Source: Aquipuribacter nitratireducens (GTDB taxonomy: Bacteria > Actinomycetota > Actinomycetes > Actinomycetales > JBBAYJ01). From it: a stretch of DNA of 64,000 nucleotides. The stretch covers positions 1 through 64,000 of the forward strand of contig NZ_JBBEOG010000001.1 of assembly GCF_037860835.1 (NCBI RefSeq), in the 5' to 3' direction. The position numbers and the translations under genes are program-made. The notes below the pieces were generated by a model that was not told where the DNA came from, ran no database searches, and saw nothing but the letters and a program-made list of their open reading frames with translations. This document shows, in pieces, positions 33,229 to 64,000 of the stretch. Each line of letters starts with the position of its first letter. Positions within the stretch are counted from its first letter, which is position 1.

Positions 33229-33585
33229 GTGCCACGAGCGGGGGTCGGGCTTCCGCGACGTGGCGACATCTGGCACCTCGACCTGGGCACGCCCATCGGT
33301 CACGAAGCAGGCGCCCGACGCTTCGCCCTCGTCGTCAGCGTCGACGCCCAGAACCGCTTCGGCCTGGCCGCAATCTGCCCGATCACGACGACGGCACTGG
33401 GCTACCCCAGTCACGTCGAGATCGACAAGGGCACCGCGGGCATGTCGGCGATCTGCTACGTGCAGGTCGAGCAGCTCCGCACGGTGTCGACCGACCGGTT
33501 CGAGACCTTCAAGGGCGTCCTGGACCCGGTGCGGATGAACGACGTGGAGCAGATCATGCGTTGGGTGCTGGGTCTCGGCCGCTGA
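33229..33585 (+). CDS. PemK/MazF-type endoribonuclease toxin
   Basis: A 118-residue toxin with the MazF fold. The N-terminal RRGDIWHLDL and the strand RRFALVVSVD are family hallmarks, as is the later ICYVQVEQLRTVS. MazF-type toxins cleave mRNA, tRNA or rRNA at short sequences. Start GTG 33229 is immediately after the antitoxin TGA. The pair is complete and looks functional. Confidence 0.9.
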   Translation: MPRAGVGLPRRGDIWHLDLGTPIGHEAGARRFALVVSVDAQNRFGLAAICPITTTALGYPSHVEIDKGTAGMSAICYVQVEQLRTVSTDRFETFKGVLDPVRMNDVEQIMRWVLGLGR

Positions 33586-43019: not shown

Positions 43020-44083
43020 GCGGGCTCGTCCCCTCGCTCGGTCTCGGCCTGCTCGCGGCCGTCGTCACCGCCGCCCTGTGCCCGCTGCTGCCGGGGCTGC
43101 TGCGCCGCGCCCACCTCCTCGACGCCCCCGGCGACCGGTCGTCGCACACGGTCCCGACCCCGCGAGGCGGCGGGCTCGCCGTGCTCGCCGGCGCCGTGGT
43201 GGCAGCGGTGGCGGCGCTCGCCCTCGGTCCGGCCGTGCCGGTCCTCGCGGGCGGCTGGGTCCCGGCGCTCGCCGCGGTCGGGGTCGCCGCCGGCCTCATC
43301 GGCCTCGTCGACGACGCCCGCGGCCTGCCGCCGGGGCTCCGCGCGGTCCTCCAGCTCCTCGTCGGCACGGGTGCGGGGCTGCTCGTCGTCGCGCTCGACG
43401 GCGTCAGCTGGGTGTGGGTGCCGGTCGCGGCCGTCGCGCTCGCCGCGTACGTCAACGCCGTCAACTTCATGGACGGCCTCAACACGGTGACGGGCCTCCA
43501 CGCCGTCGTCACGGGCGTCGCCTTCGCCGTCATGGGCGTGGTCGCGGACGCCACCGGCCCGGCGGACACCGAGTGGCTGCTGCCGGCGGGGCTCGTCGTC
43601 GCCGGTGTCGGGCTCGGGTTCCTGCCGTTCAACGGGCTCTCGGGCGGGCCCGCCCGGCTGTTCCTCGGCGACGTCGGCTCCTACGGCCTCGGCGCGATGA
43701 TCGCGTTCCTCGCGGGCGCCGGCTTCCTCACCGGCCTGCCGCTGGAGATGGCGCTGGCCCCGCTCGTCGTGTGGCTCGCCGACACCGCGCACACCCTGGT
43801 CCTGCGCATGGCCGCGGGGGAGCGGTGGTACCTGCCGCACCGCACGCACGCCTACCAGCGCCTCACCGACGCCGGCTGGTCCCACCGCCAGGTCGGGGTC
43901 GCCGCCGCGGGGGCCACGGCGCTCGCCGCGGTCGTCGCCACGCTCGTCGCGCAGGACGCTCTCGTGTGGCGGCTCGTCGGCGCCGTCGCCCTCGTCCTGC
44001 TCGGCTGGGCGTGGGTCAAGCTGCCCGCGTGGCTCGGTCACCCCTCGCCCTGGGGCGCGGTCGCCCGCGCCCGGCGCGGCTGA
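43016..44083 (+). CDS. WecA/MraY-like polyprenyl-phosphate sugar-1-phosphate transferase
   Basis: A 355-residue membrane enzyme with about ten helices. The catalytic Asp motif is NAVNFMDGLN, with FLGDVGSYGLG and the sugar-recognition HRTHAYQRLT loop. Such enzymes start glycopolymer synthesis by moving a HexNAc-1-phosphate to undecaprenyl phosphate; the HRxHxYQRL loop is typical of those using QuiNAc/FucNAc-type donors, which suits the dehydratase upstream. GTG 43016 overlaps that gene's stop. Confidence 0.92.
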   Translation: MSGLVPSLGLGLLAAVVTAALCPLLPGLLRRAHLLDAPGDRSSHTVPTPRGGGLAVLAGAVVAAVAALALGPAVPVLAGGWVPALAAVGVAAGLIGLVDDARGLPPGLRAVLQLLVGTGAGLLVVALDGVSWVWVPVAAVALAAYVNAVNFMDGLNTVTGLHAVVTGVAFAVMGVVADATGPADTEWLLPAGLVVAGVGLGFLPFNGLSGGPARLFLGDVGSYGLGAMIAFLAGAGFLTGLPLEMALAPLVVWLADTAHTLVLRMAAGERWYLPHRTHAYQRLTDAGWSHRQVGVAAAGATALAAVVATLVAQDALVWRLVGAVALVLLGWAWVKLPAWLGHPSPWGAVARARRG

Positions 44084-49900: not shown

Positions 49901-51014
49901 CGAGCAGCACGTCGAGGCCCTCGTACTGGACGAAGCTGCCCGCGTAGCCGACGACCGGCACACCCGGGGGCAGGTCGACCCCGGTCGGGCCGAGGTCGAC
50001 CCGGTCGAGCGGGGCGTAGTCGTCGACGTCGACGCTGTTGGGGGCGAGCGAGATCCGATCCGCGTCGACGCCGCGGCGGACGAGCTCGTCCTTCACCTGC
50101 TCGGTGATCGCGAGGACGTGGTCGGCCTCGCGGGCGCACAGCGCCTCGAGGTCCCGCTGGAGGCGGAACATCTCGCTGTCGGCGTAGCCGGGGTTCGCCG
50201 ACGCGCCCGTCACCTCCCACAGGCCGCGGACCTCGTAGACGAACGGCACACCGAGCCGGCGCGCGGCGATGAGGCCGGCGAGGCCCGTCGTGTAGTTGGA
50301 CGCCGCGTGCACGACGCCGGCGCGGTGCGCCCGGGCCTCGCGTGCCACGAGGTCGGCGCTGACGGCGAGGTACTCGAGGAACTGGTCCCGCTGCCGGTCG
50401 GCGCCGGGGGTGAGGACGAGGGTGGCGCCGTCGAGCGGCACGACGCGGCGCTCCGCCCGCCCCACGCCCTCGACCTCGTCCCACGGGAAGCCGGGCCGCG
50501 TGACGACGCGGACGTCCCGCCCGAGCCCGGCGAGGGCGCTCGTGAGCCCGCCGGTGCGCTGGGCGTAGCCGTTGCTGAGGTGCGGCGGCGCGGAGTACGC
50601 GACGTAGACGACGGCGTCGCGGCGCGGGGAGTACAGCGCGGCGTGCTGGCGCGGCGGCACCGGGACGGCCTCCGGGCGCAGCCCGTGCAGGCCCCGCACG
50701 TGCGCGAGGAGGGCCTCGGCGGGCCGGTTGTCCCGGACGTCGGCGTACGTGACGTCGGCGAGGACGGTCGCCGCCCCGGTGAGGTCGCCGTGCTCGGTGA
50801 GGACGGCGCGGGCGGCCGCCAGGGTCGCGCGGAGCTCCGGCGGCAGGGGTCGGTCGACGCGCCGGCGCCGGACCACCGGGGCGGGGCGCGCGCCGAGCAG
50901 CCGCGTCCGCAGCCGCTCCCGCACGCGCCACAGCCGGCGGCGCAGCGGGTACGAGCGGCGGACCGCCTCCCGGAGCAGGTCGGTGGCGCCGGATCGGCGG
51001 GCGACGTCCCGCAC
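46911..51014 (-). CDS. Giant three-module glycosyltransferase (GT4 – CgeB-like – GT-B)
   Basis: A protein of 1367 residues or more. Module 1 (about 136-520) is a GT4: AYSAPPHLSNGYAQRT, YEVRGLWE, VGYAGSFVQYEGLDVLL, ALKPLEALA. Module 2 (about 545-850) is CgeB/DUF3880-like: VFWNKEDPVHYRRF and MFSRRVVEIAASGAAVLSG. Residues 860-1030 look like a decayed GT-A region. Module 3 (about 1038-1367) is another GT-B: VLVAGHDLKFAEPLL, GRLHAQEL, GFVGMTPRAKRLDLALD. Together these suggest a polymerising or multi-step transferase for the repeat unit. The start is uncertain: GTG 51014 is the first ordinary start; an ATC codon at 51098 has an ideal AGGAG 7 bases upstream; GTG 51260 is too close to the divergent gene. 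Confidence 0.85.
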   Translation of the reverse strand: MRDVARRSGATDLLREAVRRSYPLRRRLWRVRERLRTRLLGARPAPVVRRRRVDRPLPPELRATLAAARAVLTEHGDLTGAATVLADVTYADVRDNRPAEALLAHVRGLHGLRPEAVPVPPRQHAALYSPRRDAVVYVAYSAPPHLSNGYAQRTGGLTSALAGLGRDVRVVTRPGFPWDEVEGVGRAERRVVPLDGATLVLTPGADRQRDQFLEYLAVSADLVAREARAHRAGVVHAASNYTTGLAGLIAARRLGVPFVYEVRGLWEVTGASANPGYADSEMFRLQRDLEALCAREADHVLAITEQVKDELVRRGVDADRISLAPNSVDVDDYAPLDRVDLGPTGVDLPPGVPVVGYAGSFVQYEGLDVLLDAVALLRERGVPLHLLLVGDGKEGPRLRERTAALGLQGHVTFTGRVDHVQARRLMHLFDVVAVPRRSLAVTELVSALKPLEALATARPLVVTSVAPHVVYTQDGTTGSLAAPDDAGSLADALEPYLRDGTLRAETGRRGRAWVVEHRSWQSTAARVAAVHDALVTVGTGAQPGRPLADLRVGLVADRFTTDTFGAEVQPVRLVPGDTGDVLDGLDLLLVESAWEGNGGAWTKLVGCYEDTGLDRLAELVEACRERGVPTVFWNKEDPVHYRRFAPAAALFDHVLTTDATMIRRYMREPGTLNRTVSSLPFAAQPLLHRPVATQPLDSFVAYAGTYYGDRYPDRSAELDDLLDAAAEVGLTVYDRQLLHPDSPYHFPERFSGAVRGGLPYDAMVEAYRHHPVHLNVNSVTDSPTMFSRRVVEIAASGAAVLSGRGRGVVETLGDDFPVVADRTEAAAVLHRWHDEPHERLVDALAMFRAVHRAHLVGHRLAHVARTVGLAVEGPAAPPCTLVVDRVDTAVVEAVLRQTVHPTALATPAPDPTVAQVAAMSGIRLVAPDEAPADAARLEAGADDVLTWPETLVEDVLHVARAVGRDVVVDRRPVTRTTPLVVDPASPAGEGLGLGPDGADALAAPTGPRLLVPGDERSPVVLHHATPAPRDRLEVRPRPHRVLVAGHDLKFAEPLLARLRAEGHEVLEDRWQGHNQHDAARSEELLGQADVVLCEWLLGNAAWYSRRVRPGQRLVGRLHAQELRSNLLAAVRLDRFDDVMFVGPHVRDVVTLRLGLDAARTSVVPNYVDVAALRLDKTPEAARTIGFVGMTPRAKRLDLALDVVAGIRERGHDVVLRVRGKRPEDYPWMKDRPDELAWYEGQLARLTEDPRLAGAVHLDGFGEMPQWYRQVGFVLSTSDHESFHLTVADGAASGAVPLLLAWPGADRVYPPSWVSASVDALVDRAVGVLEDDTAAARAREGYRRTAAQLFDPEETMTAFCRSLFGPEG

Positions 51015-51338: not shown

Positions 51339-52610
51339 ATGCAGGAACTCGGGACCATCGCGGTCATCGGGCTCGGCTACATCGGCCTGCCGACGGCCGC
51401 CGCCATCGCCGCGCGCGGCCACCGCGTCGTGGGCGTGGACGTCAACGAGAGCACCGTCTCGGCGGTCTCGGAGGGTCGTGTCCCGTTCGTCGAGCCCGAC
51501 CTCGGGGGAGTCGTCGAGAAGGCGGTCGCCGACGGCCTGCTGACGGCGACCACCGAGATGCCGGAGGCCGACGCGTACGTCGTCGCCGTCCCGACGCCGT
51601 TCCTCGACGACAAGTCCGCCGACCTGTCGTACATCAAGGCCGCGAGCGAGGCCATCGCCCCCCGCCTGCGGGGCGGGGAGATCGTCATCCTCGAGTCGAC
51701 GTCGCCGCCCGGCGCCACCGAGCAGATGGGGGAGTGGCTGCTCGCCGCCCGCCCCGACCTCGCCGTCGCCGGCACCGGCGACGGCCGCCCGGAGGTGTTC
51801 CTCGCCCACTGCCCCGAGCGGGTCCTGCCCGGCCGGATCATGGTGGAGATCGTCGAGAACGACCGGGTCATCGGGGGCGTGACGCCGGCGTGCGCCGAGC
51901 GCGCCGCCGACGTCTACCGCATCTTCTGCCGCGGCGAGCTCCTCACGACCGACGCCCGCACCGCCGAGCTGTGCAAGCTCGTCGAGAACAGCTTCCGCGA
52001 CGTCAACATCGCCTTCGCCAACGAGCTCGCGGGCATCTGCGACGAGCTCGGCATCGACGTGTGGCGCCTCATCGAGCTCGCGAACCGCCACCCGCGCGTC
52101 AACATCCTCAAGCCCGGTCCCGGCGTCGGCGGGCACTGCATCGCCGTCGACCCGTGGTTCATCGTCGCCGCGGCCCCGGGGCGCTCCGCCCTCATCCGCC
52201 AGGCCCGCGAGACGAACGACGCGCGCCCGGCGCAGGTCGTCGACAAGGTCCGCGCCGCCCTGCCCGAGGGTCGCAGCGCGACCGTCGCGGCGCTCGGGCT
52301 CGCGTTCAAGGCCGACGTCGACGACCTGCGGGAGTCCCCGGCGCTCCACGTCGCCGGGGAGATCGCCGACATGCTGGGCGAGGAGGGCACGCTGGTCGCC
52401 GTCGAGCCGCACGTCGAGGCGCTGCCCCGCTCGCTCGCCAACCGCCGCAACGTCGAGCTCGCCGACCTGTCCACCGCCCTCGAGCGCGCGGACGTCCTCG
52501 TGCTCCTCGTCGACCACAAGGAGTTCGCGGGCGTCGACGCCGGGCAGATCGGCGGCAAGGCCGTCGTCGACACCCGGGGGCAGTGGCGCCACGTGGTGGC
52601 AGCGCGATGA
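51339..52610 (+). CDS. wecC: UDP-N-acetyl-D-mannosamine dehydrogenase
   Basis: A 423-residue NAD-dependent enzyme that oxidises UDP-ManNAc twice to UDP-ManNAcA. The N-terminal AVIGLGYIGLPTA binds NAD; the catalytic Cys267 is in GPGVGGHCIAVDPWF; the middle motif VENSFRDVNIAFANEL is present. The GGHCIAVDPWF form points to the ManNAc rather than the glucose enzyme. Its stop overlaps the start of wecB (ATGA), the gene for the preceding step. Confidence 0.95.
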   Translation: MQELGTIAVIGLGYIGLPTAAAIAARGHRVVGVDVNESTVSAVSEGRVPFVEPDLGGVVEKAVADGLLTATTEMPEADAYVVAVPTPFLDDKSADLSYIKAASEAIAPRLRGGEIVILESTSPPGATEQMGEWLLAARPDLAVAGTGDGRPEVFLAHCPERVLPGRIMVEIVENDRVIGGVTPACAERAADVYRIFCRGELLTTDARTAELCKLVENSFRDVNIAFANELAGICDELGIDVWRLIELANRHPRVNILKPGPGVGGHCIAVDPWFIVAAAPGRSALIRQARETNDARPAQVVDKVRAALPEGRSATVAALGLAFKADVDDLRESPALHVAGEIADMLGEEGTLVAVEPHVEALPRSLANRRNVELADLSTALERADVLVLLVDHKEFAGVDAGQIGGKAVVDTRGQWRHVVAAR

Positions 52611-53776
52611 GCGAGCCGGGGGGCGCGCCGAAGCGGGTCATGCTCGTCTACGGCACGCGGCCGGAGGCCATCAAGATGGCCCCGCTCGTGCCGGCGCTCC
52701 GCGAGGCGCCCGGCCTCGAGCCGGTCGTCGCGGTCACGGGCCAGCACCGGGAGATGCTCGACCAGGTCAACGACCTGTTCGGGATCGTCCCCGACCACGA
52801 TCTCAACATCATCCAGCCGCGGCAGACCCTCGTCGACGTCACCGTCAAGGCCCTCACCGGCCTCTCGGACGTGCTGAGGGCCGACCGCCCGGACCTCGTC
52901 GTCGTCCAGGGCGACACCACGACGAGCACCGTGGCGGCGCTCGCCGCCGCGTACGAGCAGGTCCCCGTCGCGCACGTCGAGGCCGGGCTGCGGACGCACA
53001 ACCGGTACTCGCCGTTCCCCGAGGAGATCAACCGGCGGGTGACGGGCCAGCTCGCCAACCTCCACCTCGCCCCCACCGCGACGAGCCGGGCGAACCTGCT
53101 CCGCGAGGGCGTCGACCCCGCCGACGTCGCCGTCACCGGTAACACCGTCATCGACGCCCTCCTCGGGGTGGTCGGCCGCGGCGCCGACCTCACCGACCCC
53201 GCCCTCACGTGGCTCAACGACGACCCGCGGCGCGTTCTCCTCGTCACCACGCACCGCCGGGAGTCGTGGGGCGAGCCGATGGCGGCGGTCGCCCGCGGCC
53301 TCGCGCGGATCGCGCGGGACTTCCCCGACCTCGCCGTCGTCATCCCCCTGCACCGCAACCCGGTCGTCCGCGAGGTCGTCATGCCCGCGGTCGAGGGGCT
53401 GCCGAACGTCACCGTCCTCGAGCCGCTGGAGTACGCGGAGTTCGCGCGGGTCATGAACCGGGCCCACGTCGTCCTCACCGACTCCGGCGGCGTCCAGGAG
53501 GAGGCCCCGAGCCTCGGCAAGCCCGTGCTCGTCATGCGCGAGAACACGGAGCGGCCCGAGGCCGTCGAGGCGGGCACGGTCCGGCTCATCGGCACGGACG
53601 AGGACCGGGTGGTCGACGAGGTGTCGCTCCTGCTGCGCGACGAGGGCGCCTACGCCGCCATGGCGAACGCCGTCAACCCCTACGGCGACGGGCACGCGGC
53701 CGAGCGCTCCGTGGCCGCGATGGCGCAGCTGCTCGGCACGGGCTCGCGGGTCGCGGACTTCGCCCCCGAGTCCTGA
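52607..53776 (+). CDS. wecB: UDP-N-acetylglucosamine 2-epimerase
   Basis: A 389-residue non-hydrolysing epimerase that makes UDP-ManNAc from UDP-GlcNAc, the substrate of WecC. Motifs: VYGTRPEAIKMAPLV, VQGDTTTST, HVEAGLRTHNRYSPFPEE, TTHRRESWG and LTDSGGVQEEAPSLGKP. It is translationally coupled to wecC, so the pair supplies ManNAcA to the polymer. Confidence 0.96.
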   Translation: MSEPGGAPKRVMLVYGTRPEAIKMAPLVPALREAPGLEPVVAVTGQHREMLDQVNDLFGIVPDHDLNIIQPRQTLVDVTVKALTGLSDVLRADRPDLVVVQGDTTTSTVAALAAAYEQVPVAHVEAGLRTHNRYSPFPEEINRRVTGQLANLHLAPTATSRANLLREGVDPADVAVTGNTVIDALLGVVGRGADLTDPALTWLNDDPRRVLLVTTHRRESWGEPMAAVARGLARIARDFPDLAVVIPLHRNPVVREVVMPAVEGLPNVTVLEPLEYAEFARVMNRAHVVLTDSGGVQEEAPSLGKPVLVMRENTERPEAVEAGTVRLIGTDEDRVVDEVSLLLRDEGAYAAMANAVNPYGDGHAAERSVAAMAQLLGTGSRVADFAPES

Positions 53777-53800
53777 CGCCCCGGGGCGCCGGAGTCAGGA
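53771..53800. terminator. Bidirectional hairpin between wecB and the ABC-transporter gene
   Basis: TCCTGAC (53771-53777) and GTCAGGA (53794-53800) are perfect arms enclosing a second GC hairpin GCCCC-GGGGC. Both convergent stop codons lie in the arms. No T-run on either strand, as is common in actinobacterial terminators. Confidence 0.55.
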
Positions 53801-54646
53801 TCGCTCGACGACGGCGCTGAAGCTGCGGTCGAGGCCGACGACGGGCCCCGGCAGGCGCGGGGCCTCGCGACGGGTGCCGGCGCGGAAGTGGCGCCAGCCG
53901 GCGTTGTAGTCCTTGTACGCCCCGAGGACCTCCTCGGTGGGCCCGTCGAGGCGCAGCTCCCCGTCGTGGATCCACATCGTGCGGGTGCACGTGTCCTCGA
54001 CCGCCGCGAGGGTGTGGCTCACGAGGAACACCGTGCCGGCCTCGGCCTGCAGCTGGCGGATGCGCTCCTGGCTGCGTTCGCGGAACTCGGCGTCGCCGGT
54101 GTTGAGGGCCTCGTCGATGAGGAGCACCTCCGGGACCTTCGCCGTCGCGATGGCGAACTTGAGGCGGGACCCCATGCCCGCGCTGTACGTGCGCATGGGC
54201 CGGTAGATCGCGTCGCCGATGCCGGAGAACTCGGCGATCTCGTCCTTGCGCTCGCGGATCTCCTTCGGCGTCATGCCGATGGCGAGGCAGCCGAGCTCGA
54301 TGTTCCGCTCGCCCGACAGGTTGGGGAGCAGGGCGGCGTTGACCCCGAGCAGGGTGGGGGTGGCGCTCGCCCACACCGCGCCACCGCTCACGGGGCTGAG
54401 CCCGGCGATGGCACGGAGGAACGTGCTCTTGCCGGAGCCGTTGCGCCCGACGATGCCGACGGCCTCGCCGCGGTGGACGACGGCGGAGATGCCCTTGAGC
54501 GCCTCGACCCGCTGCCGGGTGGTGCCGCGGCGCCGCCTGCCGTCGCCGCCGTGGCGGCCGACCTGGACCTCGAACGTCACCCGGAGGTCGTCGACGACGA
54601 CGGTGGGCGGGGAGCCGCCGGTGCGGCGGGAGGTGCGCTCACTCAC
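53795..54646 (-). CDS. Polysaccharide ABC exporter ATP-binding subunit (TagH/Wzt type)
   Basis: A 283-residue ATPase. Walker A VGRNGSGKST (66-75), the polysaccharide-exporter signature YSAGMGSRLKFAIA, Walker B VLLIDEALNTGD, and VSHTLAAVED. The Q-loop region LLGVNAALLPNLSGERNIELG is typical of teichoic-acid and O-antigen exporters. It lacks the long C-terminal carbohydrate-binding domain of some Wzt proteins. ATG 54646 overlaps the permease stop by 8 bases. Confidence 0.94.
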   Translation of the reverse strand: MSERTSRRTGGSPPTVVVDDLRVTFEVQVGRHGGDGRRRRGTTRQRVEALKGISAVVHRGEAVGIVGRNGSGKSTFLRAIAGLSPVSGGAVWASATPTLLGVNAALLPNLSGERNIELGCLAIGMTPKEIRERKDEIAEFSGIGDAIYRPMRTYSAGMGSRLKFAIATAKVPEVLLIDEALNTGDAEFRERSQERIRQLQAEAGTVFLVSHTLAAVEDTCTRTMWIHDGELRLDGPTEEVLGAYKDYNAGWRHFRAGTRREAPRLPGPVVGLDRSFSAVVERS

Positions 54647-55523
54647 GGGAGTACACCTCCTCCGCGCGCCAGAACGCGAGGAAGCCGAGGACGGTGAGGA
54701 CGAGGGCCCAGGCGGTGCCGAGCAGCCAGTACCGGGCGTCGCTGACGGTCTGGTAGAGGACGGCGTCCCGGGCCAGCGTGAGGTAGATGTGCACCGGGTT
54801 GAGCTCGAGCACCGCGAGCAGACCGGGCTGGTCGGCGGCGAGGCGGCGGATGTCGAAGAAGACGCCGGAGGCGTACAGCCACAGCCGCAGGAGGAACGGG
54901 ATCAGCTGCCCGACGTCGTTGACCTGCGCGGTCAGGCGCGCGGCGAAGAACGCGACCCCGAGGTTGAACAGCGTGACGAGCACGAGCACCGGCACGAGCA
55001 GCAGCCAGTGCCACGTGACGGGCGACACGGGCGGGGAGATGAGGACGACGACGAGCATGACGCCGACCGCGGGCAGGAAGCCCAGCGCCTGCCGGACGAC
55101 GAGGCCGATGGGCAGCGCGGCCCGGGGGAAGGCGAGGACCTGGATCATCCGCCGGTTGCCCGTCACCGCGCGGGCGCCCTCCGACACCGCGCGCGCCGTG
55201 TACTGGTAGAGGAAGATCCCGATGACGAGGAAGCCGATGAAGTCCTCGACCTGGTCCGACGTCCCGAGCAGCAGCCCGAAGATCAGGTAGTACGCCAGCC
55301 CGAGCAGCAGCGGGTTGAGCACGAGCCACAGCGGCCCCAGCCGGTCCTGGGCGGTGTTCGACGCGAGGCCGGAGCGTGCCGTCGACAGGATGAAGTGCCG
55401 CCGGTCCCACAGCTGCGCGAGGTACACCCCGAGGGAGGGCCGCCGGCCCACGGGACGCAGGCCGTGCTCGCGGCCGAGCGCGGCGAGCTCCTCGCTCGTC
55501 ACGCGGTCACCGGCGGACGCCAT
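54639..55523 (-). CDS. Polysaccharide ABC exporter permease (TagG/Wzm type)
   Basis: A 294-residue ABC-2 permease with six helices after a cytoplasmic N-terminus. RLGPLWLVLNPLLLGLAYYL and the later LNPVHIYLTLARDAVL are typical of TagG/Wzm. With the ATPase it would carry the lipid-linked polymer across the membrane. ATG 55523 overlaps the upstream glycosyltransferase stop by 17 bases. Confidence 0.94.
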   Translation of the reverse strand: MASAGDRVTSEELAALGREHGLRPVGRRPSLGVYLAQLWDRRHFILSTARSGLASNTAQDRLGPLWLVLNPLLLGLAYYLIFGLLLGTSDQVEDFIGFLVIGIFLYQYTARAVSEGARAVTGNRRMIQVLAFPRAALPIGLVVRQALGFLPAVGVMLVVVLISPPVSPVTWHWLLLVPVLVLVTLFNLGVAFFAARLTAQVNDVGQLIPFLLRLWLYASGVFFDIRRLAADQPGLLAVLELNPVHIYLTLARDAVLYQTVSDARYWLLGTAWALVLTVLGFLAFWRAEEVYSRE

Positions 55524-57072
55524 GGGCCCAGACCTCCTCGTACACCTGCCGGTAGACCGCGGCGTTGGCGGTCCACGTCCTGTCGCGACCCACCCGTTCC
55601 CGCGCGTGCGCCCCGAGCCTACGGCGTGTCGCGGGGTCGGTGAGGCGCGCGAGGGCGTCGGCGAGGGCGGCCGGGTCCTCCGGGGCGACGACGAGCCCCT
55701 CGACGCCGTCGTCGGCGAACTCCCGCAGCGCCGGCAGGTCGCTGAGCACGAGCGGCAGGCCCGCCGCCATCGCCTCGGCGGGCTTGAGGGGGGTGACGAG
55801 GCGGCAGACGGGCGTGTCGGTGCGGGGCACGACGAAGACGTCGAGGGCGGCGAGGTGCGCCGGCACCTGCTCCTTCGGCACCCGCCCGGGCAGGACGAGC
55901 CTCGCCCCGGCCGGCAGCTCGCGGCCGAGCCGGGCGAGGCGCGGGGCGTCGTCGCCGGCGCCGACGAGGAGGACCGTGACCGCGGTGCCCGAGCCGGCGA
56001 GCCGGGCCGCGGCGGCGAGGAGCACGTCGAAGCCCTCGTAGTCGACGAGGCTCGACACGCTGCCGACGACGTAGTCGTCCGGGCCGATGCCGAGCGCCCG
56101 CCGGGTGGCGTCCCGGTCGGCACGCCGCGCGGCCTCGTCGGCCCCGCGCGCGAGGAGGTCGTCGTCGACGGCGTTCGGCACGAGGCGGATGTCCCCACGG
56201 CCCGTCCGCGCGGCGAGGTCGTCGCGCATCCCCGCCCCGATCGTGAGGGCGGCGTCGGCGTGCTGGACGGCGAACTCCTCCTGCGCACGGAACAGCGCGT
56301 ACCGGTCGCTGTCGCGGGCACCGGGACCCGTCCGCTGCGCCCACGTCTCCTCCAGCACCCCGCGGACCTCGTAGACGACCGGCAGGCCGAGCCGGCGCCC
56401 GACGTGGAGCGCGGCGAGGGCGTTCGGCCAGTGGCTGTGGGCGTGGAGCAGGTCGGCGCCGGTGTCGCGCGCGAGCCGCTCGAGCGCGTCGAGCCAGCGC
56501 CGCAGCCGGGCCTCGGCGTCGAACGGGAGGGTCCGGGGCAGGAGCCGGTGGTAGGGGATCCCGTCGACGACGTCAAGGGCGGGGCCCGGGAGGCGTCCCA
56601 CCGTCGCGGGGTAGCCGAGCGGGGTGGCGGCGGCGACCTCGACGTCGGCCTGCGCGCGCTGCACGCGCAGGACTGCCTGCGTGCGCTGGGTGTACCCGCT
56701 GCGGGTGTGCGGCAGGGAGTTCGTCACGACGTGGAGGACGCGCCGGCCCCCGCCGCTCGCGGGGGACGCGGGCGTGGTGTCGGGGCGCCACCGCGCCGCT
56801 GCCAGCTCCGCGGCGAGGCGCCGGCGCAGCCGCGAGGCCGCCGGTGCCAGCGCCACGGCCTCCTCCCAGCGGCCGGCGTGCCAGGCGGCGCGGGCGGCGG
56901 CCAGGGCCGGTGCCCCGGCGCTGCCGTCGCTCAGCCGCGGTGCGAGCCGGTCCGCGACGGCGGCGAGGGGACCGGCCCGGCGCAGCGCCCGGAGCACCAC
57001 CTCGGGCTCCTGGGTCGCGCGGGAGAGCACGGCGCTGCCCCACAGCAGCAGCCGGTCGGGGGCGGCTGGCAC
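55507..57072 (-). CDS. Glycosyltransferase family 4 with N-terminal extension
   Basis: A 521-residue GT-B enzyme. About 110 N-terminal residues, helical and Ala-rich, precede VLHVVTNSLPHTRSGYTQRT, then YEVRGVLEE, VGSVSSLVDYEGFDVLL and TPLKPAEAMA. The order and motifs closely parallel module 1 of the giant transferase (SNGYAQRT, YEVRGLWE), so the two are paralogues. GTG 57072 has no clear ribosome-binding site. It is the first gene of a three-gene operon with the exporter. Confidence 0.9.
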   Translation of the reverse strand: MPAAPDRLLLWGSAVLSRATQEPEVVLRALRRAGPLAAVADRLAPRLSDGSAGAPALAAARAAWHAGRWEEAVALAPAASRLRRRLAAELAAARWRPDTTPASPASGGGRRVLHVVTNSLPHTRSGYTQRTQAVLRVQRAQADVEVAAATPLGYPATVGRLPGPALDVVDGIPYHRLLPRTLPFDAEARLRRWLDALERLARDTGADLLHAHSHWPNALAALHVGRRLGLPVVYEVRGVLEETWAQRTGPGARDSDRYALFRAQEEFAVQHADAALTIGAGMRDDLAARTGRGDIRLVPNAVDDDLLARGADEAARRADRDATRRALGIGPDDYVVGSVSSLVDYEGFDVLLAAAARLAGSGTAVTVLLVGAGDDAPRLARLGRELPAGARLVLPGRVPKEQVPAHLAALDVFVVPRTDTPVCRLVTPLKPAEAMAAGLPLVLSDLPALREFADDGVEGLVVAPEDPAALADALARLTDPATRRRLGAHARERVGRDRTWTANAAVYRQVYEEVWAHGVRR

Positions 57073-57126
57073 CGGGCAAGGAAACCACAGCGGGCGCGTG
57101 CTCCCGGGCGGAGCCGGAGGCGCTGG

Positions 57127-57132: not shown

Positions 57133-57213
57133 GCCCGGGACCGCGGGCGGCGCACGGTGGCCTGGAGGGCGCGGGTGGACACGCGACGAGGCAGTCGGCC
57201 TGGAGGTCCGGTG

Positions 57214-59814
57214 GTGGAGCAGGGGACCGGAGCGGTCGCCGCGGGTCTGACGACCGTCCGCGCCGACGGCGTCGAGTACCTCATGGCGCTGCCGGACCGC
57301 GGCACGGACTACATCCAGCGCTCCATCGCCGACACCGGCGCCCCCTACGAGGCGCGCATGCTCCGGGCGATGGCGCAGTGGGCGGGTGAGGGCGACCTCG
57401 TCGTCGACGCCGGGGCGAACGTCGGCAACCACACGGTGTTCCTCGCGGCGGTCCGCGGCTGCCGGGTCCTCGCGATCGAGCCGGACCCGCACCTGTGCGC
57501 CGCGGTCGAGCGGTCCGTCGCGGCGAACGACCTCGCCCACCTCGTCCGCGTCGAGTGCGCCGGGCTCGGCGCCGAGGCCGGGCTGGGGCGCCTCGTCGTC
57601 GGGTCCGGTGCGAACGTCGGCGCGCAGCGGCTCGAGGTGGGCGACGGCGGCGTGCCCGTGACGACGCTCGACGCCCTCCTCGCCGGCGAGGCCGTGCACG
57701 TCGTCAAGATCGACGTCGAGGGCATGGAGTGGGAGGTGCTCCGCGGGGCGGAGCGCACGCTCGCCGAGCACCGGCCCGTGCTGTTCGTCGAGGCCGCCGA
57801 GCCGGGCGGCCTCGCGCGCCTGTCGGCGTGGCTGCGCGAGCGCGGCTACGCCTACGTCGACACGTTCAACGCCACGCCCACCCACCTGTTCGTCCGCGAC
57901 GACCACCCGCGGCTGCTGCCCGAGCTCATCGAGCGGCACGAGCGCGCCGTCCGGGACCGGCTCGAGCTGGAGGCACGCTCGCGCAGCGCCGAGCAGCGCC
58001 TCGCGGTGGCGCGTCGCGCGCTCGCCCGTCCGCGCGTGCCCGCGGACGGCGCTGTCGGCGACGGCGCTCCCGGCGACGGCGGCGCGAGCGTGTCGACGGC
58101 TGCGGCCCTCGGGCGCCACGCGCAGGAGCGGCTCCGCGCGGCTCTCGGGCGCGAGGAGCGTGCGCTCGTGGCCCTGCGGGAGGCCGTCGGCGAGGTCGAA
58201 CGCCTCGTCGAGGAGTCCGAGCGGCAGCGCGCCGACCTCGAGCGCGCGGCCCACCGGCTCGCGACCCTCCGCCGCTCCCGGCTGCTGCGCTCGGCGGCCG
58301 CGCTGCGCCGGACCGGCAGCGCCCGCGACGTCGTGACGCTGCCCGCCCGCCTGCTCCGGGCGATGCGACCGGTGGCCGTCCCGGCGCCCGCCGCGACGGT
58401 CGCCGGGGCGCCGCCGACGTCCCGGGCCGTGCCGCAGGGCGCGCGCGGGGGCACGAGCACCCGTGAGGTCGACGAGCGGCTCGCGGTGCTCGCGACGACC
58501 ATCGCGGCCGGACCCAGGAGCGACGGTCCCGACGGGCCGCGGGTCGCCGTGGTCGCGGCCGCGTCCGTCGGCGGGGTGCTCGCCCCGGCGTGCGCGCTCA
58601 CCATGCTGTCGCAGGGGGGGTGGCGCGACGAGGTGGCGCTCGCCTCGCCCGAGCTCGTCGTCGTCGCGGGCACCGGCGCGCCCGCGTACGGCGGGTGGCC
58701 CGACGCCGAGGGCGTCGAGCTGCTCGCGTGGGCCGGGCCGGCGGGCGTGCCGGTCGTCCACTGGCGGGGGAGCGACGACCCGCCCGTGTGGGTGCAGGCG
58801 GTGCCCGCGACGCTCGACCTGCCCCCCGCGGTGGACCTGCACGTTCACGGCCCCGTCGCCGCGTCCCCCCGCGCGCGGACCGGGGTCGTCGTCGTCGGCG
58901 CCGGGCCCGACGCCGAGGTGCTGCGGGACCGGGTCGAGGCCGCGGGCGCCGCGGCGCGCCTCCTCGCACCGGCCATGCGGCTGGACCCCGGCGTGGGCCG
59001 CAAGACGGCGGTGATCGTGATCCACCCGTCCGTCGGACCGCACGCCGACCAGCTCGTCGTCCAGGCGCTCGCCTGCGGCGCCGCCGTCGTCGCCGAGCGG
59101 CACGGCGGTGCCCTCGACGACCTCCTCGCCGACGTGCTCGCGGGTGACAGCACCCCTGGCCGGCTCGCCGCGCTCGCCGCCGACGACCGTCGACGAGCCG
59201 TCCAGCGCGCACGGGCCCTCACCGCCGTGGCGCACGACCACACGGGCCTCAGGCGCCTGCAGCAGCTGGCCGCGGCCGCGGGTGCGGCTCTTCCGGCGCC
59301 CTCCGGCGCACGCGTCCTCGCGCTCCTCGCGCCGCCGGACGCGGCCGCCGCCGAGCGGCTCGTCGCGACCGTCGCGCGGCAGGCGGACGTCCGGGTGCCG
59401 GTCGTCGCCCTCGCCGCCGGCGACGCCGCCCGCGTGCTGTCCGAGGGCCTGCCCGACGCCGTGGTGCTCGGAGAACCCGACGACGTGGCCGCGGTGGTGG
59501 CCGAGCGGCTGCTCGTCGACGTGGACCTCGTGGCCGTGCTCCACGAGGACGACCGCTACGGCGAGGACTACCTGTCCGGGCTGGCGCTGGGTCGGCTGTG
59601 CTCCGACGGCGAGGTGTTCGGCAAGGCCGACCCCGGCGCGCCCGACTTCGTCGTCGCCCGCCGGCTCCCGGTCCGCCGCTCGGCCACCGCTGCCGGGTAC
59701 GCCCACCACGTCGACTGGGCGGACGCGCTGCTGCGGCGGGACGACGCCGAGATCGTGTCGGGACGGTGCGTCGTGCTCGACGCGGAGGGCTACCAGCAGG
59801 GGGTCGATCGATGA
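57214..59814 (+). CDS. FkbM methyltransferase fused to coiled coil and GT-like domains
   Basis: An 866-residue fusion. Residues about 25-220 are an FkbM-type SAM methyltransferase: VVDAGANVGNHTVFLA (64-79) and VKIDVEGMEWEVLRGAE. Residues about 230-370 are a charged coiled coil. The rest has two GT-like parts: a GT-B-like half (about 430-690) and a C-terminal piece with LHEDDRYGEDYLSGLALG that resembles the DDDDWYGPHHLREL site of the GT-A gene at 63142 but with altered acids. It may O-methylate sugars of the polymer, for instance to stop chain growth. TGGAGG lies 7 bases before GTG 57214; GTG 57211 is equally possible. Confidence 0.8.
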   Translation: MEQGTGAVAAGLTTVRADGVEYLMALPDRGTDYIQRSIADTGAPYEARMLRAMAQWAGEGDLVVDAGANVGNHTVFLAAVRGCRVLAIEPDPHLCAAVERSVAANDLAHLVRVECAGLGAEAGLGRLVVGSGANVGAQRLEVGDGGVPVTTLDALLAGEAVHVVKIDVEGMEWEVLRGAERTLAEHRPVLFVEAAEPGGLARLSAWLRERGYAYVDTFNATPTHLFVRDDHPRLLPELIERHERAVRDRLELEARSRSAEQRLAVARRALARPRVPADGAVGDGAPGDGGASVSTAAALGRHAQERLRAALGREERALVALREAVGEVERLVEESERQRADLERAAHRLATLRRSRLLRSAAALRRTGSARDVVTLPARLLRAMRPVAVPAPAATVAGAPPTSRAVPQGARGGTSTREVDERLAVLATTIAAGPRSDGPDGPRVAVVAAASVGGVLAPACALTMLSQGGWRDEVALASPELVVVAGTGAPAYGGWPDAEGVELLAWAGPAGVPVVHWRGSDDPPVWVQAVPATLDLPPAVDLHVHGPVAASPRARTGVVVVGAGPDAEVLRDRVEAAGAAARLLAPAMRLDPGVGRKTAVIVIHPSVGPHADQLVVQALACGAAVVAERHGGALDDLLADVLAGDSTPGRLAALAADDRRRAVQRARALTAVAHDHTGLRRLQQLAAAAGAALPAPSGARVLALLAPPDAAAAERLVATVARQADVRVPVVALAAGDAARVLSEGLPDAVVLGEPDDVAAVVAERLLVDVDLVAVLHEDDRYGEDYLSGLALGRLCSDGEVFGKADPGAPDFVVARRLPVRRSATAAGYAHHVDWADALLRRDDAEIVSGRCVVLDAEGYQQGVDR

Positions 59815-59849
59815 AGGGACCAGCGGCGACCTCGGGGGAGACGGTGTGA
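59811..59849 (+). CDS. 12-codon ORF linking two genes
   Basis: The reading frame MKGPAATSGETV starts at ATG 59811 inside the FkbM stop (ATGA) and ends with TGA overlapping the next gene's GTG (GTGTGA). A G-rich stretch (CAGGGGGT) is a suitable ribosome-binding site. Ribosomes finishing the FkbM gene could re-initiate here and hand over to the next gene. The peptide itself is probably not functional. Confidence 0.4.
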   Translation: MKGPAATSGETV

Positions 59850-60331
59850 ACGCGACGAGCGTGCGGCGCGCGGCGGTGGTCGCAGTGACGCTGGCCGTCG
59901 CCGCGGCCTGCGTGGTCCTGCTCGGCGCGACGGGCTGGCTCCTCGCCGTCGAGGTCCTCGTGCTCGGGGTCGTCGTCGACCTGTCCCTCCTGCTGCGCGC
60001 CGAGCGGCGTGCCGCCGCCGCGCGCCACCGTGCCCGCGAGGCCGCCCGTCGCGCGTCGGACCAGCAGCGTGCCGCCACCGCGGAGTCCCTCGCCGAGACC
60101 CGGTCGGGGGTCGAGGCGCTCGACCGGCGTCTCGACGCGCTCGCCGACCGCCTCGCCGAGGTCGCGGCCGCCGTGCGGGAGGTCGGCCTCGTCTCGGACC
60201 GTCTCGAGACGGGCCTCCGCCGGGTCGACGACCAGTGCGTGTCCCTGCGGCTCGAGGTCGACCGGGCGACGGCCGCGATCGCCGACCGCGCCGAGCTCCT
60301 CGAGGCCGCCGAGGGCACCGAGCGGGCGTGA
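59846..60331 (+). CDS. Bitopic membrane protein with long coiled coil
   Basis: A 161-residue protein with two close hydrophobic helices (about 10-52) and an Ala/Arg/Glu-rich helical tail (55-155) with heptad spacing. GGGGAG lies 6 bases before GTG 59846. It could be a length-control or scaffolding factor of the glycosyltransferase complex, like other coiled-coil proteins in polymer loci, but this is speculation. It overlaps the next gene by 4 bases. Confidence 0.7.
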   Translation: MNATSVRRAAVVAVTLAVAAACVVLLGATGWLLAVEVLVLGVVVDLSLLLRAERRAAAARHRAREAARRASDQQRAATAESLAETRSGVEALDRRLDALADRLAEVAAAVREVGLVSDRLETGLRRVDDQCVSLRLEVDRATAAIADRAELLEAAEGTERA

Positions 60332-61701
60332 ACGGGGACCCGAGGCCCGGCGTCACGGTCGTCGTGCCGTGCTACCAGGCGGGCGGCACGGTCCTGGAGT
60401 GCCTGGAGTCGCTGCGGCACCAGCGCCTGCCCCGCGCGGCCTTCGACGTGGTCGTCATCCACAACGGCCCCCCCGACCCGGCCGAGCAGCTCGTGCGGCG
60501 CATGGCCCGCCGGTACCCGACGTTCGGGCTCACCCAGCGCCGGTCACCGGAGGGCGCCGCGGCCGCCCGCAACGTCGGGATCGAGGCGAGCGACCGCGAG
60601 CACGTGACGTTCGTCGACCACGACGACGTCGTGACCCCCAACTACCTCCGCGGTCTCCTCGAGGCGGCAGGCCCCGGCGTCGTCGCCACGGCCCAGCTCG
60701 CCGACCGCGACCCCCGGGGCGGGGCGCTGCCGGAGTCCGACCTGTCGCGGGCGCTGCGCGCCGCCGCCGGGCACGAGCGCCAGGTCGGCTCCCTGCCGCA
60801 GGTCATCGGGTACTCCGTCGGCAAGCTCGTCCCCCGCGCGTGGCTCGACACGGTCCGCTTCGACCCCTCGCTGCGCAGCGGGGAGGACGTCGAGTTCTAC
60901 CACCGCCTCTTCCGCGACCACCCGGCGCGGCTCCTCGTCACCCCGCCCGGCGAGGACTGCACGTACGTGCGGACGGTGCGGACTGGCTCCCTCGGGCGCC
61001 GCGAGGTCTCGTGGGGGTTCAGCGTCGAGGAGCGGCTCGCCGTCGTGGCGCGCCTCCATGCCGCCCGGGACCCCGACCGCGCGCCGGGGCCGCTCCTCGC
61101 GACGGCGCTCGCCGGTCAGGCCTGGCACATGAACCGCTACCTGCGCCTGCACCCGCAGGACCGCACGACCGTCGTCGACGCCGTCCTCGACCTCGGCGTC
61201 ACGTACTTCCCGTTCCCGTCCCTCAACCGCTCCATGGCGCGCGCCGCGACCCTCGCCTACCGGTTCTCGCCCTACGCCGGGCCCGCGCACGAACCCCTCG
61301 TCCGGCTGCTCGAGGAGCGCGGTGAGGTGCACGACGTCCTGCAGGCCGACCTCGACGGGCACCACCCGCCGTCGTGGCAGTGGCGCGACCGCACCAACCG
61401 CCACCTCGACGAGCGGGTCCTGCTCGCCGTCACCGACCCGGCCGACCGCTCACCCGCGGCCGTCGAGGCGTACGTCGAGCGGCTCGTCGAGGCAGTGCGG
61501 GAACGCGCGGCGCGCAAGCGGTACGACACGCTCGTCTGCACGACGGAGCGGGTCGAGGACGTCCTCGCCTGCCGGCGGCTCCGCGGGATCCTCCCGGGCG
61601 TCCGATGGGTGTGCCTCGACGCCGGGCCGGCGTCGGACCCCTCGCTCGACCGCGCGGACCTCGCCGAGGTCGACGACCTCGTCGTGGCGGGCGCGGACTA
61701 G
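60328..61701 (+). CDS. Glycosyltransferase family 2
   Basis: A 457-residue GT-A transferase. The N-terminus VTVVVPCYQAGGTVLECLES binds the nucleotide sugar; the metal site is VDHDD; the acceptor side has RSGEDVEFYHRL. The C-terminal 200 residues are an additional helical domain. GTG 60328 overlaps the previous stop. The end interlocks with the convergent GT2 gene by 4 bases. Confidence 0.9.
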   Translation: MNGDPRPGVTVVVPCYQAGGTVLECLESLRHQRLPRAAFDVVVIHNGPPDPAEQLVRRMARRYPTFGLTQRRSPEGAAAARNVGIEASDREHVTFVDHDDVVTPNYLRGLLEAAGPGVVATAQLADRDPRGGALPESDLSRALRAAAGHERQVGSLPQVIGYSVGKLVPRAWLDTVRFDPSLRSGEDVEFYHRLFRDHPARLLVTPPGEDCTYVRTVRTGSLGRREVSWGFSVEERLAVVARLHAARDPDRAPGPLLATALAGQAWHMNRYLRLHPQDRTTVVDAVLDLGVTYFPFPSLNRSMARAATLAYRFSPYAGPAHEPLVRLLEERGEVHDVLQADLDGHHPPSWQWRDRTNRHLDERVLLAVTDPADRSPAAVEAYVERLVEAVRERAARKRYDTLVCTTERVEDVLACRRLRGILPGVRWVCLDAGPASDPSLDRADLAEVDDLVVAGAD

Positions 61702-63137
61702 GCGCTCACCGGGACGTCGACGGCGTGGACGTCGAGGTCCTCGCCACGGAACCACCGGCCCCCGGAGACGGCGGAGACGACGTCGTCACCCGGCGTGGCG
61801 CTGCCGCTGAGCCGCCTCGCCCGGTTGAGCGCTGCGACCCGGTGCACCCGCAGGCCGGGGTCGACGGCCCCACCGACGGTCGCGGCGAGCAACCCGAGGT
61901 CGGTGCGCACCATGGTGTCGACGACCCGCTCGAGGGCCTGGGGACCGAGCCGGGCACCGGCCGGCAGCCTCGTGACGAACGGGACCGCCGGGTCGGTGCC
62001 GGCCATGGCGTCCGGACCGTCGACGAGGACGAAGCGGGGGTCGGCCCTCACGTACTCGCGCACGAGCCGGAACGGCATGCGGTCGTCCCGCAGCGGGGAC
62101 CAGCGCCCCTCGTCCAGGGTGCGCCACGGCCCGGCCAGGCGGACCTGGAAGTCGTGGAGCGGGCCGCCCGCCACCGCGAGGAGGGTGGCGACGAGCGCGT
62201 CGACGCCGGACGGGTCGATGCAGTGAGCGGTGACGTCGACGCCGACCGCGACGACCGGGACGTCCCACAGCGGCCCCTGCGCACGGCGCCGGAACCGCGG
62301 GAGCGGCATGCGCTGCGCGACGTGGGGGCGGTTGTAGGCGATCACCCGCTCCTTCGTCGTCATGACGGTGGACGGACCGAGGTGGAAGGCCGCCGCGCGC
62401 GGCTCCGGCACGAACACCGCACCCTGGTTGTACAGCCGGTAGCCGGCCTCGGAGTCCTCGGCGAGCTTGAGCGAGACGTCGAGCCCGCCCGACGCCGCGA
62501 GGAGGTCGGCCCGCACCGACGCCGTCGCGCCCACGAGGACGCGGAAGGCGTCCCACCCCGCCTCCGCGAGACCGCACGTCCGGTCGACGATGGCCTCGAT
62601 CCAGTCGTGGGGCAGGCGGGGCACCGACGCGTCGACGAGCGCCTCCTCCTGCCCGGCCCGCACGCGCCGGACGACCTCCGCCGGCGTGGCGAGGGGAGCG
62701 TCGACGAACCGCTTGTACCCGAGGGTCACGACGTCGTCGGCCACCTCGTGCCAGCGGACCTGCGCCTCGACGTGCTCCCGGAACGGCAGCATGTCGGAGT
62801 CGAGCCACAGCACGACCTCGCCGGTCGCGTGCTCCGCGCCGGTCTGCCGGGCCGCCGCGCTGCCCCAGCCGTGGCGGGGGTCGGTCGCGACGACGCGGGT
62901 GCCGGCCGGCCGCGGGCCGGCGAGCCGGACCGGCACCGCGCCGCCGTCGTCCACCACGAGCACCTCGAGGAGGTCCTGCGGGTAGCTCTGCTCCGACAGC
63001 GCCGCGAGCGTCAGGGGCAGGGTGTCCGCGCAGTCGTACGCCGGGACCACGACGCTGACGGTCCGCCGGGGCGTCCACCGCCCGAGCTCCGGTGGCCGGA
63101 GGCTGCGCCAGTCGTTGCGGAAGACGGGACCCGTCAC
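61698..63137 (-). CDS. Glycosyltransferase family 2 with C-terminal extension
   Basis: A 479-residue GT-A enzyme. VSVVVPAYDCADTLPLTLAALS opens the fold; the metal-binding site is WLDSDML; LKLAEDSEAGYRLYNQGA is the acceptor-site ED motif. The last 200 residues form a further domain unlike the GT-A core. GTG 63137 is 4 bp downstream of the next gene's stop, so the two are probably one operon reading leftward. Confidence 0.9.
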   Translation of the reverse strand: MTGPVFRNDWRSLRPPELGRWTPRRTVSVVVPAYDCADTLPLTLAALSEQSYPQDLLEVLVVDDGGAVPVRLAGPRPAGTRVVATDPRHGWGSAAARQTGAEHATGEVVLWLDSDMLPFREHVEAQVRWHEVADDVVTLGYKRFVDAPLATPAEVVRRVRAGQEEALVDASVPRLPHDWIEAIVDRTCGLAEAGWDAFRVLVGATASVRADLLAASGGLDVSLKLAEDSEAGYRLYNQGAVFVPEPRAAAFHLGPSTVMTTKERVIAYNRPHVAQRMPLPRFRRRAQGPLWDVPVVAVGVDVTAHCIDPSGVDALVATLLAVAGGPLHDFQVRLAGPWRTLDEGRWSPLRDDRMPFRLVREYVRADPRFVLVDGPDAMAGTDPAVPFVTRLPAGARLGPQALERVVDTMVRTDLGLLAATVGGAVDPGLRVHRVAALNRARRLSGSATPGDDVVSAVSGGRWFRGEDLDVHAVDVPVSA

Positions 63138-63141
63138 GGCG

Positions 63142-64000
63142 TCAGACCCACCGGCGGTCGTCGTCCGCGTCCGTCATCGCGGGCCCCCCGGCCCGCCCCC
63201 ACGTCTGGTGGTAGGCGCGGTCGAGGAAGTAGTCGACGCCCGGGTCCCACGTGTGCCCGTCGCGGGACCGGCGCAGGACCATGTTGTGGGCGTGGGTGCG
63301 GTAGATCGTCGCGCCGGCCGCCGTCGCGGCGGCGAGGAGGCCGGCGTCGACGCCGCTGGCGAGGGACGGGAACCCGCCGAGGTCCTCGACCGTCTCGCGG
63401 CGGGCGGTGATGGTGCCCCCGGCGACGTGGGTCGTCGGCAGCTCGTTGACGGACTGCCGGGCGACCGTGACGTCGAGCGCCTCGAGGTGGACGAACTCCG
63501 CGTTGCAGCCGACGACGGCGGCGCCGCTGGTGGTGAGGGCGGTGCGGAGCTCGCGGAGGTGGTGCGGGCCGTACCAGTCGTCGTCGTCCCACTTCGTCAC
63601 GAGGTCGGTGCCGGCCCGCCGCACCGCCGCCGTGAGGACGTCCCCGAAGACCTCGTCGGCGCCGTGGACCGCGACGTCGGCGGCGAGCCCGGAGTCGTCG
63701 AGCGCCCCGCGGGCGTCGTCCGGCAGCCGCTCGACGCCGTGGAGCGCGATCACGAGGACCGGCCGGACCCCACGCTGGCCCGCCACCTGCTCGACGGCGT
63801 GCCGGAGCATGCCCGGTCGGCGGGAGCACAGCACGACCCCGACCTCGGGCTCGGGTCCTGCCGGCGCCGCCCGCTCCACCGCACGGCGGAGCCGGATGCT
63901 GTGGGTCTCCCGCTCCAGCGGGGCCCACGGCCCCGGGGCCCGTCCGACGAGCCGCGCGAGCGGGCGACCGAGCAGGTGCTCGGCCCACCGGGGGAGGGGC
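63142..64000 (-). CDS. Glycosyltransferase, GT-A type, 5' end beyond the window
   Basis: At least 285 residues; the frame is open to the right edge, so the true start lies outside (GTG 63879 is only an internal codon). Motifs: VGVVLCSRRPGMLRHAVEQV, the metal site KWDDDDWYGPHHLREL and TITARRETVEDLGGFPS. The DDDDxYG form marks a subgroup seen in actinobacterial glycan loci and resembles the decayed C-terminus of the FkbM fusion. It ends the visible locus. Confidence 0.82.
   Translation of the reverse strand, partial: PLPRWAEHLLGRPLARLVGRAPGPWAPLERETHSIRLRRAVERAAPAGPEPEVGVVLCSRRPGMLRHAVEQVAGQRGVRPVLVIALHGVERLPDDARGALDDSGLAADVAVHGADEVFGDVLTAAVRRAGTDLVTKWDDDDWYGPHHLRELRTALTTSGAAVVGCNAEFVHLEALDVTVARQSVNELPTTHVAGGTITARRETVEDLGGFPSLASGVDAGLLAAATAAGATIYRTHAHNMVLRRSRDGHTWDPGVDYFLDRAYHQTWGRAGGPAMTDADDDRRWV

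What the first reader, a model, noticed from the sequence alone, without database searches (positions are those of the whole stretch)
57214..60331. FkbM methyltransferase fused to coiled coil plus a second coiled-coil protein
A methyltransferase tied to a coiled coil and followed by a membrane coiled-coil protein recalls chain-length rulers such as WbdD, where a terminating enzyme measures polymer length with a coil. The parts here come from different families, so it would be an independent solution.
Basis: inference. Interest (0 to 1): 0.6.

Follow-up and report, generated by a model that had tools for sequence, protein, structure and literature searches.

The report
Coiled-coil methyltransferase in wall-glycan cluster
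A high-GC bacterium carries, inside a gene cluster for a cell-wall sugar polymer, a methyl-adding enzyme joined to a coiled coil and a broken sugar-transferase, followed by a small membrane coiled-coil protein; it probably docks methylation onto the polymer-building machine, and whether it also measures polymer length is open.

Summary
The 161-aa second protein (59846-60331) is a membrane segment plus coil of no recognised family. Both lie in a wall-glycan cluster (WecA-type initiator, WecB/WecC, Wzm/Wzt, LytR-CpsA-Psr). The WbdD comparison is partly supported: methyltransferase-coil-GT is a published format (Klebsiella O7 ORF6; Gram-positive WsaE is MT-GT-GT), so the idea is not an independent invention, though FkbM-coil-GT was not found in the papers searched. 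The cap-reading domain that marks terminator systems is missing: Wzt is 283 aa and the genome has no Wzt_C; in Klebsiella O2a such a transporter needs no cap. A better-shaped ruler candidate lies just outside the window: C1:64378-65565, membrane hairpin + variable-length helical spacer + distal Methyltransf_24 domain, a family in 50 of 246 genomes sampled from the class. Most likely the pair is a scaffolded glycan O-methylation unit (0.5); a length-ruler role is possible (0.2).

The parts
57211..59814 (+). 867-aa FkbM-coil-degenerate GT protein (P1)
57406..57852 (+). FkbM methyltransferase domain (aa 66-214), SAM motif D66-x-G-A-N-x-G and KIDVEG motif conserved
57913..58026 (+). first helix of the coil region (aa 235-272), weak heptad signal
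58096..58314 (+). second, longer coil helix (aa 296-368)
59056..59628 (+). degenerate, truncated glycosyltransferase relative (aa 616-806), HEDDRYG in place of DDDDxYG
59846..60331 (+). 161-aa membrane segment (aa 5-54) plus coiled coil (P2), no family hit in Pfam or NCBIfam
60328..61701 (+). GT2 glycosyltransferase whose start overlaps the P2 stop
61698..63137 (-). GT2 glycosyltransferase
63142..64000 (-). GT-A glycosyltransferase with DDDDWYG motif (gene runs to C1:64305, outside the window)
55507..57090 (-). GT4 glycosyltransferase, divergent from P1 (start approximate)
54639..55523 (-). Wzm-type ABC permease
53795..54646 (-). Wzt-type ATPase, 283 aa, no Wzt_C domain
52607..53776 (+). WecB (UDP-GlcNAc 2-epimerase)
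51339..52610 (+). WecC (UDP-ManNAc dehydrogenase)
46911..51014 (-). 1367-aa GT4 / CgeB-like / GT4 protein
43016..44083 (+). WecA/MraY-like initiating transferase (PF00953)

Best explanation
P1 and P2 are non-polymerising subunits of the cytoplasmic complex that builds a ManNAcA-containing wall glycopolymer exported by a Wzt without cap-binding domain. Shown by sequence: FkbM domain with intact SAM motifs, coil, degenerate GT tail, membrane-coil partner in the same tight operon, cluster content. Inferred: the coils of P1 and P2 pair or bundle at the membrane; the degenerate GT tail serves as a docking domain for the active glycosyltransferases; FkbM adds an O-methyl group to a sugar of the chain while it is still lipid-linked; chain length is set mainly by coupling of extension and export, as in Klebsiella O2a, not by the methyl group.
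For: FkbM hits and conserved SAM/KIDVEG residues. Cluster content: PF00953 initiator, WecB/WecC, Wzm/Wzt, several GTs, LytR-CpsA-Psr at C1:65697-66671. P1-P2 gap 31 nt, P2/GT overlap 4 nt. Coil statistics. GT tail homologous but lacking the C-terminal ~75 aa and the DDDD motif of its relatives. CBM-less Wzt and the O2a precedent. FkbM-coil joined to other GT tails in G530 and G603, which fits a docking module. In the published systems the coil protein also serves as membrane scaffold for the complex.
Against: No interaction data. The AF2 model of the P1 tail has pLDDT about 30-40 over most of its length, so its fold is not shown; 'pseudo-GT' rests on alignment. Of 126 columns invariant in six GT relatives P1's tail keeps 30, no more than five shuffled copies (25-35), so by that count nothing is retained. 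P2 has no convincing relatives, and small TM+coil ORFs near related loci are rare (1 of 17, 2 of 48, control 0 of 26). O-methylation of the polymer is not shown.
Confidence: 0.5

Rival explanations
1. WbdD/ORF6-O7-like terminator and ruler: FkbM caps the non-reducing end by O-methylation once the chain spans the P1 (and/or P2) coil, ending polymerisation.
For: Same order of parts as Klebsiella O7 ORF6 (methyltransferase-coil-GT-GT) and an ABC-exporter cluster; membrane coil partner in the operon; Gram-positive precedent WsaE, whose methylation was chain-length independent in vitro, leaving room for an extra length factor.
Against: No CBM on Wzt or elsewhere in the genome; coil broken by a Pro/Gly linker; the GT modules attached to it are degenerate; FkbM domains are common outside such fusions (FkbM in 130 of 246 genomes).
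Confidence: 0.2
2. The length-measuring protein is the neighbour at C1:64378-65565 (membrane hairpin, ~135-aa helical spacer, distal Methyltransf_24 domain); P1 and P2 are accessory.
For: Topology: membrane end, spacer, distal methyltransferase. Family in 17 of 297 order genomes and 50 of 246 class genomes. TM end to SAM motif 88-185 aa in 14 of 17 readable members, with conserved ends. Wzt+Wzm in 6 of 17 order loci against 1 of 21 FkbM-centred control loci. Present in 3 of 3 FkbM-coil-GT clusters seen (window, G530, G603).
Against: Wzt+Wzm in only 2 of 48 class loci. Spacer-length variation can be drift; most members fail a simple heptad filter and 3 of 17 have no membrane segment. Substrate unknown.
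Confidence: 0.2
3. P1 is a decaying fusion: only the FkbM domain matters, and coil and GT tail are relics.
For: Truncated, motif-poor tail; no P1 relative in the two other genomes of the genus held.
Against: Coding-like third-position G+C along the whole ORF and a tight operon; no stop inside; FkbM-coil-GT recurs elsewhere.
Confidence: 0.1

Closest known systems
Klebsiella pneumoniae O7 ORF6 (methyltransferase-kinase-CBM-coil-GT2-GT2; PMC11231755)
   Same: N-terminal methyltransferase, central coil, C-terminal GT modules, Wzm/Wzt cluster
   Different: ORF6 has a kinase and a CBM of its own and working GT2 modules; P1 is FkbM type, has no kinase or CBM hit, and its GT part is degenerate
E. coli O9a WbdD (PMC3482155)
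   Same: methyltransferase plus coil in an ABC-exporter pathway
   Different: WbdD has MT 1-210, kinase 211-459, coil region 460-708; Wzt of terminated systems carries a CBM; WbdD not among PDB sequence hits of P1
Geobacillus stearothermophilus WsaE (PMC2943079)
   Same: Gram-positive, methyltransferase + two GT modules in one protein, Wzm/Wzt export
   Different: no coil mentioned in the passages read; both GT domains active; methyl cap reported
Klebsiella O1/O2a pathway (PMC11231755)
   Same: ABC transporter without CBM
   Different: no methyltransferase-coil protein mentioned in the passages read
   Same: FkbM, coil, GT tail; near a TM-coil-Methyltransf_24 gene
   Different: other GT tails; no Wzm/Wzt match in the fetched flanks

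Membership tests
Coiled-coil glycan terminator/ruler (WbdD, WbbB, ORF6-O7 class) | ABC-exporter (Wzm/Wzt) dependent assembly | tested here: met
Coiled-coil glycan terminator/ruler (WbdD, WbbB, ORF6-O7 class) | catalytic terminator domain at one end of an extended coil, away from membrane/polymerase modules | tested here: inconclusive
   FkbM, then helices of 38 and 73 residues split by a linker, then degenerate GT
Coiled-coil glycan terminator/ruler (WbdD, WbbB, ORF6-O7 class) | carbohydrate-binding domain on Wzt that reads the cap | tested here: not met
   positive control: L108 Wzt (407 aa) does show Wzt_C
Coiled-coil glycan terminator/ruler (WbdD, WbbB, ORF6-O7 class) | coil length sets polymer length | not testable with these tools
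   needs mutants and polymer sizing
WbdD family proper | sequence homology to WbdD methyltransferase/kinase | tested here: not met
   PDB sequence searches with P1 and with A3 list no WbdD; Pfam shows no kinase
FkbM methyltransferase family | Pfam and NCBIfam scores over curated cut-offs, SAM motif | tested here: met
CgeB-like + GT-A (DDDDxYG) two-part glycosyltransferase | sequence homology | tested here: met
   aa 616-806, with shuffle control
CgeB-like + GT-A (DDDDxYG) two-part glycosyltransferase | conserved motifs and complete C-terminus | tested here: not met
   HEDDRYG, FWNKEDP lost, last ~75 aa absent; retained invariants not above shuffles

The most novel reading that the evidence does not exclude
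A Gram-positive wall-glycan length ruler built from two membrane-anchored coils (P2 and the 64378 protein with its distal Methyltransf_24 domain) and an FkbM-coil-pseudo-glycosyltransferase that docks on the polymerase, working with a cap-blind Wzt, i.e. length measurement without cap-gated export.
Probability: 0.15. Interest if true: 0.7.

Novelty: new variant of a known kind. Interest (0 to 1): 0.42.

Why it matters
How Gram-positive bacteria set the length of ABC-exported glycans is little understood (own judgement); for WsaE an additional length factor was proposed. A recurrent family with membrane end, variable helical spacer and distal methyltransferase, next to FkbM-coil-GT fusions, gives concrete genes whose spacer can be lengthened or shortened in a laboratory strain to test whether coil rulers exist outside Gram-negative O antigens, and whether they need a cap-reading transporter.

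Tried and rejected
Full-length P1 against the order failed twice; replaced by the C-terminal and N-terminal parts. Mixed alignment A2 with window paralogues was misaligned and dropped. The idea that P2 is the N-terminal half of the 64378 protein: BLAST E 0.004, coil only, not accepted as homology. P2 relatives in 396 order genomes were coil-type or membrane-type look-alikes, judged by eye on 7 of the 15 loci given. Invariant-column counting as proof of GT homology was rejected because shuffles score alike; hhalign with shuffles was used instead. A general FkbM partnership with TM-coil-MT24 was rejected: 2 of 48 class loci and 0 of 17 order loci have FkbM nearby. FkbM survey: the listing was cut; of 22 listed matches with frames of 540 aa or more (own excluded) 21 were fetched in 20 regions (G464:C154 left out); 2 of 20 regions hold FkbM-coil-GT. 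In one search, L094, L106 and L109 were dropped because the motif pattern missed them. Foldseek of the P1 model gave only generic methyltransferases at E 1e-4 to 1e-3. P1 has no match in the phage records.

Literature: 'not found' for FkbM-coil-GT rests (0 papers each) and for teichuronic/coiled-coil/methyltransferase (0), in an open-licence library only. Read: PMC11231755 (passages, section 11 part 1, section 13 part 1), PMC3482155 (passages), PMC2943079 (passages). Hagelueken 2015 is not held.

Full report
What is there. The window is the first 64 kb of contig C1 (772,822 bases) of a 3.83-Mb genome in 26 contigs, G+C about 72-81% along the window. The finding covers two genes. P1 (57211-59814, +, 867 aa) has a FkbM methyltransferase domain at aa 66-214; the D-x-G-A-N-x-G and KIDVEGMEWE motifs are invariant in the alignment of seven FkbM proteins, P1 included. 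The AlphaFold2 model (7 sequences) is confident over roughly aa 45-215, shows helices at 235-272 and 296-368, and is unreliable over most of the stretch beyond about aa 370. A home-made heptad score with 2000 shuffles supports the second helix (4 shuffles reach the mean score), the first only weakly (37), and the coil of P2 strongly (0).

The missed half. P1 continues for about 450 residues after the coil. Positions 616-806 align with a family of two-part glycosyltransferases found in other genomes (L027, L028, L029, L100, L102, L093): hhalign score 77, E 1.5e-9, against at most 22.7 for 60 shuffles and 23.7 for 16 other window proteins. In P1 the FWNKEDP-type segment and roughly 80 residues of the first part are lost, the DDDDxYG motif reads HEDDRYG, and the last ~75 residues are absent. 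Counting invariant columns gave no more than shuffled sequences (30 against 25-35 of 126), so the family's hallmark residues are gone while local homology remains. Third-position G+C stays 0.88-0.99 along the ORF, so the tail looks translated. I infer a pseudo-glycosyltransferase docking domain.

P2 (59846-60331, +, 161 aa) starts 31 nt after P1 and overlaps the next GT gene by 4 nt. It has one hydrophobic stretch, aa 5-54, long enough for a hairpin, and a coil to the end; no Pfam or NCBIfam hit. A search of 396 genomes of the order gave only weak matches besides itself (83 of 396 genomes at E 0.01, own included).

Surroundings. CapD-type dehydratase (41160), PF00953 initiator (43016), GTs, WecC (51339), WecB (52607), Wzt and Wzm (53795-55523), GT4, P1, P2, two GT2, a DDDD-type GT (63142-64305), then outside the window a membrane-coil-Methyltransf_24 protein (C1:64378-65565) and a LytR-CpsA-Psr protein (65697-66671). 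This reads as a complete lipid-linked, ABC-exported, wall-attached, ManNAcA-containing glycopolymer pathway; the attachment and sugar content are inferences from families.

Test of the ruler idea. Terminator/ruler systems described in PMC11231755 put the terminator at the far end of a coil, and in all terminated examples Wzt has a carbohydrate-binding module; the O1/O2a transporter lacks it, length there follows from coupling with export, and the O1 cap only diversifies. Here Wzt shows the ATPase domain but no Wzt_C, and Wzt_C is absent from the genome (0 of 1; the search rang in 3 of 14 control genomes). The comparison therefore fails on a defining feature. [quoted passage not shown]

How unusual. 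In a PF05050 survey of 246 class genomes 130 had FkbM. Of 20 long-frame regions fetched, two hold FkbM-coil-GT genes: G530 (two tandem, 1034 and 1046 aa) and G603 (1125 aa). Their GT tails differ from that of P1, so FkbM-coil looks like a module attached to different tails. All three FkbM-coil-GT clusters, the window's included, also hold a membrane-coil-Methyltransf_24 gene: 4.6 kb after the end of P1 here, 4.7 kb away in G530, adjacent in G603. The converse is not true: FkbM (by the three queries used) lies near it in 0 of 17 order loci and 2 of 48 class loci.

The neighbour family. The 64378-type protein occurs in 17 of 297 order genomes and 50 of 246 class genomes, own genome included in both. 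Of 17 readable members, 14 have a membrane segment and 88-185 residues between it and the SAM motif (three loci missed by the pattern); ends are conserved, the middle varies in length. Wzt and Wzm lie near it in 6 of 17 order loci, 2 of 48 class loci (the 50 class genomes less the own and G138), and 1 of 21 FkbM-centred control loci; a relative of GT61698 in 1 of 17, 19 of 48 and 1 of 21. It is the better-shaped ruler candidate, but the variation in spacer length could be drift and the class-level link with Wzm/Wzt is thin. In G136 a 132-aa membrane-coil ORF without a methyltransferase lies head to head with it (L094), recalling P2; such ORFs are otherwise rare (1 of 17, 2 of 48, control 0 of 26).

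Verdict. Ordinary parts in an uncommon combination: most likely a scaffolded O-methylation unit of a wall-glycan assembly complex (0.5), possibly a ruler (0.2).

Noticed in passing
C1:64378-65565 (L002:378-1565, -), just beyond the window: Membrane hairpin + helical spacer + Methyltransf_24 protein; spacer length varies between relatives while both ends are conserved.
   Followed up: yes
window 46911-51014 (-): 1367-aa protein with GT4, intact CgeB-like part (hhalign E 2.9e-60), a stretch that no longer looks like the DDDD GT-A, then a second GT4; degenerate GT-A modules seem recurrent (also L093:6808-8421).
   Followed up: partly
L094:8713-9111 (-): 132-aa membrane-coil ORF without catalytic domain, head to head with a membrane-coil-Methyltransf_24 gene.
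   Followed up: partly
window 46172-46900 (-): DUF6270 protein (PF19786 E 1.4e-51) inside the glycan cluster; a relative (1e-21) lies near the Methyltransf_24 gene in L102.
   Followed up: no
C1:66949-71222 (L002), downstream of the window: Consecutive secreted-looking proteins with repeated 'YNSVTGRQVLVNLF'-like units.
   Followed up: no
window 32950-33585 (+): Two small adjacent genes that look by eye like a ribbon-helix-helix antitoxin and a MazF/PemK-like toxin; not searched.
   Followed up: no
L108:13925-15148 (-): Wzt of 407 aa with a Wzt_C domain in the locus whose membrane-coil-Methyltransf_24 protein has the shortest spacer (88 residues).
   Followed up: no
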